From NCBI GenBank assembly GCA_024336345.1, contig JANFOG010000003.1, forward strand, positions 874,501 through 938,500: 64,000 nucleotides of DNA, given 5' to 3'. The first letter of the stretch is position 1. Each line of letters starts with the position of its first letter. A model generated the notes under the pieces. It was not told the origin of the DNA. It saw nothing but the letters and a program-made list of their open reading frames with translations, and did no database searches. Source of the stretch: Mariannaea sp. PMI_226. Its lineage: Eukaryota > Ascomycota > Sordariomycetes > Hypocreales > Nectriaceae. Below, in pieces: positions 35,025 to 36,842 of the stretch. The translations under genes were made by a program, and so were the position numbers.

Positions 35025-36842
35025 ATGTTTAGCCGCAATCGAACCTTCGATGAGGTGATTGACCTCACTGGTGACCTCGGTCCTCTTGGCCACAGATTAG
35101 CTCGTCAAACCCATTTCAATCTTGAAACCTTTCGAACCTCCGGTAACATTGTCGTCAAGGCAGGAAATTTCCTCCAAATTCAAGAGCTTAATATTGGCGA
35201 ATACTCAGCAGAGTTTCTCCTAGTCCGACAGATTTCCCGATGTAAATCATCGGGTAAGGTTACCATTCGTGGTGTCCCTTTTGCAAGGACCTCGATGATG
35301 CTGGGCAAACTCCCAAGAAAGTCGAACGAAGTTTGCATGATAATTTACTACGAAGATGGGAGTTCAAATACAGAGGGAATAGTCGACATTGATTCCTCCC
35401 AGATTCTTGGCCAGCATCACCTGATCTTTACGAACGCAATTTACCCAGATTTCAAATCCTCTTCGCATTTGACCTGCCGCTAGAAGCTGGAAGTTGGTTT
35501 TATCTCGCATGGGAGCAAGAAAAAAAAGGCTGAAGAAGCCTTGATTAGAATTCACGCCGATGCCGTCAAAGACCCCCGATATCACGTTGTTGAATCGAGT
35601 CTTGGAAATCGATGGCGAGGAATATCGGTGAAGGGGGGTTCCTGGATTCCTGACTCACGACATTCTCGAAGGAATATTATCGATTTGGATGGAAACAGAG
35701 ACCAAGACGAATCAAAGCGAATGCCTGGCCAAAAATACACAGTCTTCGATGCCTGCTCTGGTGCTGGTGGCGTTTCTCGAGGAGCGTTGATGGCCGGATT
35801 CAAGATCCAGTACGCTGTGGACAAGGCGCCAGACGTTTGGCAAACGTACGGAATGAACTTTCCGGATACAAAGCTCTACAAGATGTCCTTAAACAGCTTT
35901 CTATCTACGACAATCAATCAGCGCATGCAAGTAGATGTGTTGCATTTCTCCCCGCCATGCCAGTTTTTTTCGCCTGCCCATACGACTGCATCTGTACATG
36001 ATGACGAGAACATCTTTGCACTATTTAGTTGTAACCAGCTTCTGAAGAAACTGCGGCCGAGAATTGTTACAGTTGAGCAAACGTTTGGCTTGACCCATGA
36101 GCGTCACCTAGAGTGGTTTTTCCCTTTCTTGGGGGACTTTACTCAGCATGGGTACTCTGTGAGATGGAAGATAGTCCGACTATGCACTTGGGGTGCCGCT
36201 CAAGATCGCAAACGACTAGTAATTATTGCTGCAGCACCAGGAGAAAGACTTCCTCCTTTCCCAAGCGCAACACATTCCGAAGATGGAAGAGGTGGCTTGC
36301 TGCCGTACAATACAATCGTGAAGGCGTTGAGTGGAAGAACCAGGCCTGATGACGATTTACACGACGTGAACAACACAAGGCATTTCAATCCACCCAGAAG
36401 GCCCTATGACGCCAATCGATTGGCAGGGACAATTACCACTGGTGGTGGTGATATATACTTTCCTGATGGAACCCGAGAACTGACACTCAGAGAATGGGCC
36501 AACCTTCAAGGATTTCCACAGAGCCATATGTTCTGTGGAACTAAAACGTCTATCAAGAGACAAATTGGGAATGCTTTCCCTCCCAGCACCGTTCGAGTGC
36601 TCTACAGTCACATTGAAGAGTGGCTCTTGAGCGAAGACCAGATGCAGCGCTTTGACAATTCCATCCTCGTTGATGACGATTCAGACACATGTACTTTGAT
36701 CAGTGAAACTGAAGTAGGTAACAGATCCCCGAATATGGGAGACGTTATCGAGATGGACGATGTCATGGAAATCAGTGAGGGCCAGGCACGATGCCCTATT
36801 CTGCTTGATGACGACGACTGTATGGTCATCGACTTGAATTGA
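35025..36842 (+). CDS. rid: RID/Masc1-type cytosine-5 DNA methyltransferase, frame interrupted by one TAG
   Basis: Family needed for RIP in Neurospora and for premeiotic methylation (MIP, Masc1) in Ascobolus; acts in nuclei before meiosis. One intronless frame of 606 codons with a single in-frame TAG at 35481-35483 (residue 153). Upstream is a BAH-like region (NEVCMIIYYEDG, HHLIFTNAIYPDF). Downstream all methyltransferase motifs are intact: I FDACSGAGG (241-249), IV SPPCQFFSPAHT with catalytic Cys312, VI VEQT (EQT replaces ENV, the RID/Masc1 signature as I recall), VIII AAQDRKR (391-397), X QIGNAFPP (513-520). There is no GT between 35384 and 35492, so no ordinary intron removes the stop. Either the gene has recently died, or the UAG is edited to UGG. 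Listed as CDS because nothing else is broken. Confidence 0.85.
35481..35483 (+). other. In-frame TAG in the RID-type gene
   Basis: CTGCCGC-TAG-AAGCTGG. It follows LTCR, where family members, as I remember them, have Trp. TGG to TAG is a G-to-A change whose opposite strand is CpA to TpA, the RIP context. A-to-I editing of the A would restore Trp. Confidence 0.85.

What the first reader, a model, noticed from the sequence alone, without database searches (positions are those of the whole stretch)
35481..35483. RID-type DNA methyltransferase carries a single in-frame UAG at a probable Trp codon
Seen: one intronless 606-codon frame, intact methyltransferase motifs on the far side of the stop, one TAG only, and no GT between 35384 and 35492 that could be a donor. 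Known: RID acts just before meiosis, and perithecium-specific A-to-I mRNA editing in Fusarium, Neurospora and Sordaria turns some UAG stops into UGG Trp. Inference: this could be an editing-dependent RIP enzyme, active only in sexual tissue. The rival view is that TGG to TAG is itself a CpA to TpA change on the other strand, so the RIP gene could have been killed by RIP-like mutation. The lack of any second lesion argues against old decay. The TAG can be drawn in the loop of an imperfect CCGC/GCUGG stem, but that fold is weak.
Basis: partly seen in the sequence, partly recalled or inferred. Interest (0 to 1): 0.87.

Follow-up and report, generated by a model that had tools for sequence, protein, structure and literature searches.

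The report
Editing-dependent stop in RID methyltransferase gene
The gene for the fungal RID enzyme carries a stop signal in its DNA at a codon where a known sexual-stage RNA editing system probably restores tryptophan, as already published for a related fungus, and the neighbouring helicase gene carries a second stop of the same kind.

Summary
The window matches Mariannaea sp. PMI_226 (Nectriaceae). RID is one frame of 606 codons with a single TAG at codon 153. Among the 120 best homologues, Trp stands there in 65 of 65 outside named Nectriaceae that cover it, and in 0 of 51 Nectriaceae models; 41 of these resume exactly at the next codon, as if an intron had been drawn to dodge a TAG. Editing-dependent RID is already published: FgRID of Fusarium graminearum needs UAG-to-UGG correction at UA644G (PMC4817773, PMC11156358, PMC12167651), and that position is consistent with this codon. 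So this is an orthologous case, with no sign of decay or RIP. New here: the adjacent SF1 helicase also has one in-frame TAG (38932-38934) at a Trp present in 106 of 120 homologues, in a hairpin loop; protein models suggest a stop at the same codon in four further lineages. PUK1-like, AMA1-like and SPO22 genes of this genome also carry in-frame TAGs; DCP1 does not. Editing itself is inferred: no RNA data were available, and the RNA fold at the RID site is weak.

The parts
35025..36842 (+). RID-type C5 DNA methyltransferase gene, one frame, 605 residues if the TAG is read as Trp (the start codon may be further upstream: relatives have longer N-termini)
35481..35483 (+). in-frame TAG, codon 153; Trp in homologues outside Nectriaceae; predicted premature-stop-correction editing site, edited base 35482
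35331..35483 (+). 153-nt stretch removed as an intron in the deposited model P0002; its acceptor AG is that of the TAG; judged a false intron
37513..37554 (+). exon 1 of the neighbouring SF1 helicase gene (14 codons)
   Evidence: intron 37555-37608
37609..39957 (+). exon 2 of the SF1 helicase (AAA_11, AAA_12); 796 residues in all if the TAG is read as Trp
38932..38934 (+). in-frame TAG of the helicase, codon 456; Trp in 106 of 120 homologues; second predicted editing site, base 38933
38928..38940 (+). innermost hairpin GGAUU-AGA-AAUCC whose loop holds the A of the helicase UAG

Best explanation
The TAG is a conserved premature-stop-correction (PSC) site of the fungal A-to-I mRNA editing system. 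In vegetative cells the RID mRNA would give a 152-residue fragment without the catalytic domain. In perithecia the Tad2-Tad3-Ame1 deaminase would change UAG to UIG, read as UGG (Trp), so that full-length RID appears when RIP acts. The site is the orthologue of FgRID UA644G and seems to be shared across Nectriaceae. The next gene, an SF1 helicase, very probably has its own, more recently gained PSC site. Shown here: both TAGs, the Trp in relatives, the intact frames, no sign of decay. Inferred: the editing, its stage and the enzyme in this species.
For: Trp in 65 of 65 covering homologues outside named Nectriaceae, 0 of 51 within; 41 of the 51 models resume at the codon after the TAG. Published FgRID editing (passages; sections); position consistent with nt 644. 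Five of six neighbouring bases are of the preferred kind at both TAGs (context, preferences). RIP indices are not raised. Divergence from outgroups is not raised: 0.648 identity in the methyltransferase part, 15 other Nectriaceae 0.628-0.685. A second TAG at a conserved Trp in the next gene. TAGTAG at the DWW motif of a PUK1-like kinase, and TAGs in AMA1-like and SPO22 genes. Trp153 lies within strand 149-162 of the model.
Against: No RNA data. The RID site has no good hairpin: 188 of 200 shuffles fold as well; the probability that the A is unpaired varies from 0.10 to 0.72 over seven windows. Preferred bases at -2, +3 and +4 are common (143 of 1137 TAGs of the window). DCP1 has no TAG although a Dcp1-like gene is on the published list. 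No ORF ending at the RID stop was found by a search with the first 152 residues. Conservation of the TAG itself is deduced from protein models, as no DNA of other fungi was available.
Confidence: 0.88

Rival explanations
1. RID is a recent pseudogene, killed by a G-to-A (possibly RIP-like CpA to TpA) nonsense mutation.
For: TGG-to-TAG is a CpA-to-TpA change on the other strand; it is 9 of the 58 C>T/G>A nonsense changes possible in the frame. RNA evidence for editing is missing here.
Against: No second lesion in the frame; RIP indices TpA/ApT 0.50 and (CpA+TpG)/(ApC+GpT) 1.35, window 0.66 and 1.27; no faster divergence; all Nectriaceae models lack the Trp, which one recent mutation in Mariannaea cannot explain; the next gene has the same lesion type at a conserved Trp.
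Confidence: 0.05
2. The TAG lies at the end of a real 153-nt intron (35331-35483), as in the deposited model.
For: In-frame length, GT...AG borders; the deposited model P0002 uses it.
Against: It would remove residues 103-153, several strands of a confidently modelled domain, in a region that homologues outside Nectriaceae keep. Models of other Nectriaceae end before this point at many different places, although 41 of 51 resume at the same codon. PMC4817773 and PMC11169179 report that automated annotation invents such introns.
Confidence: 0.03
3. The codon is edited, but by another route or at another stage, for example a virus-responsive OLD-type editor or hyphal editing.
For: PSC editing outside the sexual stage exists: OLD-ZAO in Neurospora (PMC12754623), CHE1 in F. 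graminearum hyphae (PMC11169179). FgRID was reported as constitutively expressed at a low level (PMC10512235).
Against: FgRID editing is described as belonging to sexual reproduction.
Confidence: 0.03
4. Sequencing or assembly error: the DNA is TGG.
For: A single base decides; reads were not available.
Against: Two TAGs in adjacent genes, and gene models of other species assembled independently avoid the same codon.
Confidence: 0.01

Closest known systems
FgRID (FGSG_08648 / FGRRES_08648) of Fusarium graminearum, PSC site UA644G
   Same: RID orthologue with one UAG that needs stage-specific UAG-to-UGG editing to give the full protein; the position is consistent with this codon.
   Different: There the edit was seen in RNA; here it is inferred from DNA and relatives. 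The F. graminearum helicase homologue P0153 has Trp at the helicase site.
PUK1 and the 69 further PSC genes of F. graminearum
   Same: UAG in the coding frame, avoided by automated annotation with false introns.
   Different: The PUK1-like gene here also has one more TAG upstream in the same frame. Whether the helicase is on a published list could not be checked (supplements not readable).
CHE1 of Fusarium (PMC11169179)
   Same: A conserved PSC that causes three kinds of annotation error: canonical stop, downstream start, false small intron. Like patterns occur in the RID or helicase homologues here.
   Different: A zinc-finger gene edited in hyphae.
OLD-ZAO module of Neurospora crassa (PMC12754623)
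   Same: UAG-to-UIG correction of a conserved stop, in a gene pair.
   Different: Virus-responsive, and one gene of the pair is the editor; neither gene here looks like a deaminase.

Membership tests
RID-type DNA methyltransferase | C5 cytosine methyltransferase domain | tested here: met
   PF00145, E 3.3e-38; structural matches to DNMT1, MET1, ZMET2 and DIM2
RID-type DNA methyltransferase | orthology to RID proteins | tested here: met
   full-length homologues through Hypocreales, among them one named rid1 (P0079); no formal tree of RID was built
RID-type DNA methyltransferase | needed for RIP | not testable with these tools
   needs crosses
PSC-edited gene (fungal A-to-I editing) | in-frame UAG where relatives encode Trp | tested here: met
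   RID: 65 of 65 covering homologues outside named Nectriaceae; helicase: 106 of 120
PSC-edited gene (fungal A-to-I editing) | conserved coding frame beyond the stop | tested here: met
PSC-edited gene (fungal A-to-I editing) | preferred neighbouring bases (-2 to +4), U at -1 above all | tested here: met
   5 of 6 at both sites, +2 being the exception
PSC-edited gene (fungal A-to-I editing) | A in a stable hairpin loop (a tendency: about 62% of sites in F. graminearum) | tested here: inconclusive
   RID: not met. Helicase: met, A unpaired with probability 0.98-1.0 in seven windows, but only z -1.90 against shuffles
PSC-edited gene (fungal A-to-I editing) | A-to-G in RNA of sexual tissue | not testable with these tools
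   no RNA data
PSC-edited gene (fungal A-to-I editing) | Tad2, Tad3 and Ame1 in the genome | tested here: inconclusive
   7 PF00383 matches and three DUF726 loci; orthology of Ame1, Tad2 and Tad3 not settled

The most novel reading that the evidence does not exclude
RID and the helicase beside it form a conserved gene pair gated by RNA editing. RID lost its Trp codon to UAG once, in the ancestor of Nectriaceae; the helicase gained UAG at one particular Trp codon about five separate times in Hypocreales (Mariannaea with Thelonectria, a second Nectriaceae-like lineage, a lineage beside Drechmeria, Cladobotryum, Trichoderma reesei). The helicase would be a sexual-stage partner in RIP or meiotic genome defence, and the repeated gain would mark selection for a sexual-stage switch, helped by a codon context (Asp-Trp-Lys) that suits the editor.
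Probability: 0.3. Interest if true: 0.72.

Novelty: new member of a known kind. Interest (0 to 1): 0.45.

Why it matters
It extends the published F. graminearum case to what looks like a family-wide state: the RIP enzyme of Nectriaceae can only be made after RNA editing, which would tie genome defence by mutation to sexual tissue through one codon. It also explains why all 51 Nectriaceae RID models seen here lack that Trp. The neighbouring helicase is a new candidate partner of RID, and the apparent repeated gain of a stop at one codon makes the question whether such stops are selected or merely tolerated directly countable.

Tried and rejected
Search for ORFs that end at the RID stop, with the first 152 residues as query: 7 candidates, none significant. 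Hairpin argument for the RID site: not supported. For the helicase site it is moderate: z -1.90, 12 of 200 shuffles as good; in 3.2% of 2000 synonymous-codon shuffles the A was in a hairpin loop with an MFE at least as low. RIP index: no signal. dN/dS was not computed, as no DNA of another Nectriaceae was available; identity to outgroups was used instead. Other frames joined across a stop: 11 stops of the window have at least 100 open codons on both sides (5 TGA, 4 TAG, 2 TAA). Besides the two reported, the TAG at 37606 is the helicase intron acceptor and the TAG at 48985 is antisense to an Hsp70 gene; of the other seven, four were printed and look by eye like intron edges or non-coding, the rest were not examined. 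Internal restart as source of the catalytic domain: the first Met after the TAG, residue 233, is shared only by Thelonectria (P0003) among the other species, so this was not pursued. Ame1 orthologue: three DUF726 loci seen, identity not settled.

What the counts leave out: only the best 120 of 770 RID hits and the best 120 of 151 helicase hits were listed and aligned, and each search scored only the 7996 candidates sharing most words. One of the 51 Nectriaceae rows, P0002, is the deposited model of this very gene. Family membership was looked up for Mariannaea, Cosmosporella and Thelonectria and recalled for the other genera. The helicase tree used 109 of 121 rows; left out were P0132 (same gene), P0222, P0234, P0236, P0237, P0239, P0240, and the short rows P0227, P0230, P0232, P0235, P0238. 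Three Trichoderma rows that skip the site less precisely (P0215, P0223, P0226) were labelled apart. The place of P0242 differs between the trees (long branch), both times among Nectriaceae-like rows.

Full report
What is there. The window is G000:C19:874501-938500. C19 is 4,370,929 bases long, the contig length given for the best RID hit P0002, a protein of Mariannaea sp. PMI_226 that matches the window's RID except for 51 missing residues. Mariannaea is a genus of Nectriaceae, Hypocreales. RID runs 35025-36842 on the + strand as one frame of 606 codons with a single TAG at codon 153. Pfam finds the C5 methyltransferase domain. The genome search gives this one match for the protein, and PF00145 one further locus, on C2.

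The codon in relatives. The 120 best of 770 hits were aligned with the window's protein. Of 51 rows named to Nectriaceae genera, none has Trp at this column (46 gaps, 5 with Asn from a neighbouring stretch), and 41 resume exactly at the next codon (K/R-L-E/Q-V). Of the other 69 rows, 65 have Trp, almost always as Cys-Arg-Trp, and 4 are models that begin downstream. A model that resumes exactly after a codon has used that codon's AG as splice acceptor; TGG cannot give AG, whereas TAG, one step away, can. This is a deduction from protein models: no DNA of other fungi was available.

Match to the published case. PMC4817773 (passages, sections 12 and 13) lists the rid ortholog FGRRES_08648 among 69 further F. 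[quoted passage not shown] PMC12167651 (passages) gives UA644G and says that rid acts as a pseudogene that needs stage-specific editing. PMC11156358 (passages) reviews FgRID as an edited gene. Base 644 is the middle base of codon 215. The F. austroamericanum model P0048 has 183 residues before KLEV, so 31 would be missing before a Trp215; the F. fujikuroi model P0022 shows 27 residues in that stretch before its own gap, which would leave about four plus the Trp. The lengths are consistent but not proof: the stretch varies in length between species, and I did not read the F. graminearum gene itself.

Not decay. TpA/ApT is 0.50 and (CpA+TpG)/(ApC+GpT) 1.35 in RID, 0.66 and 1.27 in the whole window; GC content by codon position is similar before and after the TAG. 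Mean identity of the methyltransferase part to eight outgroup proteins is 0.648, within the range 0.628-0.685 of 15 other Nectriaceae; for the helicase after its TAG 0.599, within 0.585-0.636 of 13 others. AlphaFold2 (44 sequences, mean pLDDT 79.9) puts Trp153 in strand 149-162 of the N-terminal domain; the deposited 153-nt intron would remove residues 103-153. The whole model resembles DNMT1, MET1, ZMET2 and DIM2.

The second TAG. The next gene (exons 37513-37554 and 37609-39957) encodes an SF1 helicase of 796 residues, interrupted once, at 38932-38934, codon 456. Of 120 homologues 106 have Trp there, 10 have a gap, and four distant ones have Ala or Gln. Of the ten gaps, P0132 is the deposited model of this same gene; P0124 (Thelonectria olida) lacks exactly seven codons ending there, a 21-nt 'intron'; P0184 (Cladobotryum) and P0231 (Trichoderma reesei) resume exactly after it; P0241 and P0242, unnamed metagenome proteins, end exactly before it, P0242 on a contig of 191,945 bases; P0215, P0223, P0226 and P0234 skip the area less precisely. 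In a tree of 109 rows Mariannaea and Thelonectria are sisters (SH-aLRT 99), and the six TAG-like rows need five separate changes, also if only strongly supported branches count; a test of clustering against shuffled labels is not significant (41 of 500 as low). The homologue of F. graminearum, P0153, has Trp. The A lies in a three-base hairpin loop and is unpaired with probability 0.98-1.0 in seven windows; the 61-nt fold ranks 24 of 1137 TAGs of the window and 14 of 371 hairpin-loop TAGs, but is only 1.9 standard deviations better than shuffles.

Base context. PMC9600606 (passages, section 6) gives preferred bases C/U at -2, U at -1, A/G at +1, +3 and +4, G at +2. Both TAGs fit five of six, failing at +2. 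Given a TAG, the remaining three fits are not rare: 143 of 1137 TAGs of the window have them.

The gene pair. RID and the helicase bear consecutive locus numbers in 12 of the 13 assemblies whose tag prefix appears in both listings (matched by eye), among them Hirsutella outside Nectriaceae. The exception is F. decemcellulare, with contigs of 21.9 and 4.9 kb. PMC12543289 (passages) reports that Rid1 lies in a mostly conserved locus; the passages name no helicase beside it.

Other known edited genes as a test. In the same genome a kinase on C12 has tandem TAG TAG inside a CD..SIGIILYECLYGHTPF stretch, as PUK1 has tandem UAG UAG in its kinase domain; the same frame has one more TAG upstream. An AMA1-like WD40 gene on C8 has a TAG at codon 83 of the frame that holds its DRYVP motif (the motif's meaning is recalled), plus another TAG near the end of that frame that may be an intron edge; its WD40 match, 97.6 bits, is below the family cut-off of 200, so the name is tentative. 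The SPO22 gene on C3 has a TAG inside a 201-codon frame, outside the matched domain. DCP1 has none. PUK1, AMA1, SPO22 and a Dcp1-like gene are named as edited in PMC4817773. With RID that makes 4 of 5 named genes examined; the place of the edit could be compared only for RID and PUK1, and no relatives of the other two were aligned.

Literature on novelty. Mariannaea with RNA editing: no paper. A-to-I, RNA editing, helicase, premature stop codon, perithecia and Neurospora together: two papers, neither about this helicase in the passages seen. RIP, helicase, RID, adjacent, synteny and methyltransferase together: seven papers, two looked into by passages (PMC12543289, PMC3218866), no RID-helicase link there. 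Supplementary tables could not be read, so a published list may already hold the helicase.

Verdict. What goes beyond it is the apparent conservation across Nectriaceae and the second, apparently recurrent, stop in the neighbouring helicase.

Noticed in passing
window 38932-38934 (+): Second in-frame TAG at a conserved Trp codon, in the SF1 helicase next to RID, in a hairpin loop; protein models and metagenome ORFs suggest a stop at the same codon in other lineages.
   Followed up: partly
L042 (G000:C12:4134500-4138500), minus strand: PUK1-like kinase with tandem TAG TAG at its DWW motif, and one further TAG upstream in the same frame.
   Followed up: partly
L076 (G000:C3:697000-701500), plus strand: SPO22 gene with one in-frame TAG (KKCHV-stop-DLCHLIRIF) within a 201-codon frame.
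   Followed up: partly
L069 (G000:C8:63500-66800), minus strand: AMA1-like gene with an in-frame TAG at codon 83.
   Followed up: partly
G000:C12:3241284-3241862 and two loci on C1: Three DUF726 loci; the C12 match has one in-frame TAG inside. One of the three may be the editing cofactor Ame1.
   Followed up: partly
G000:C4:325613-325913 (L064, L067): A short partial second copy of the helicase's N-terminal part (66-75% identity), with two TAGs in the match.
   Followed up: no
window 48064-49866 (-): Two long antisense frames split by a TAG opposite an Hsp70 gene; one matches the Pfam family NAD-GH, probably an antisense artefact.
   Followed up: partly
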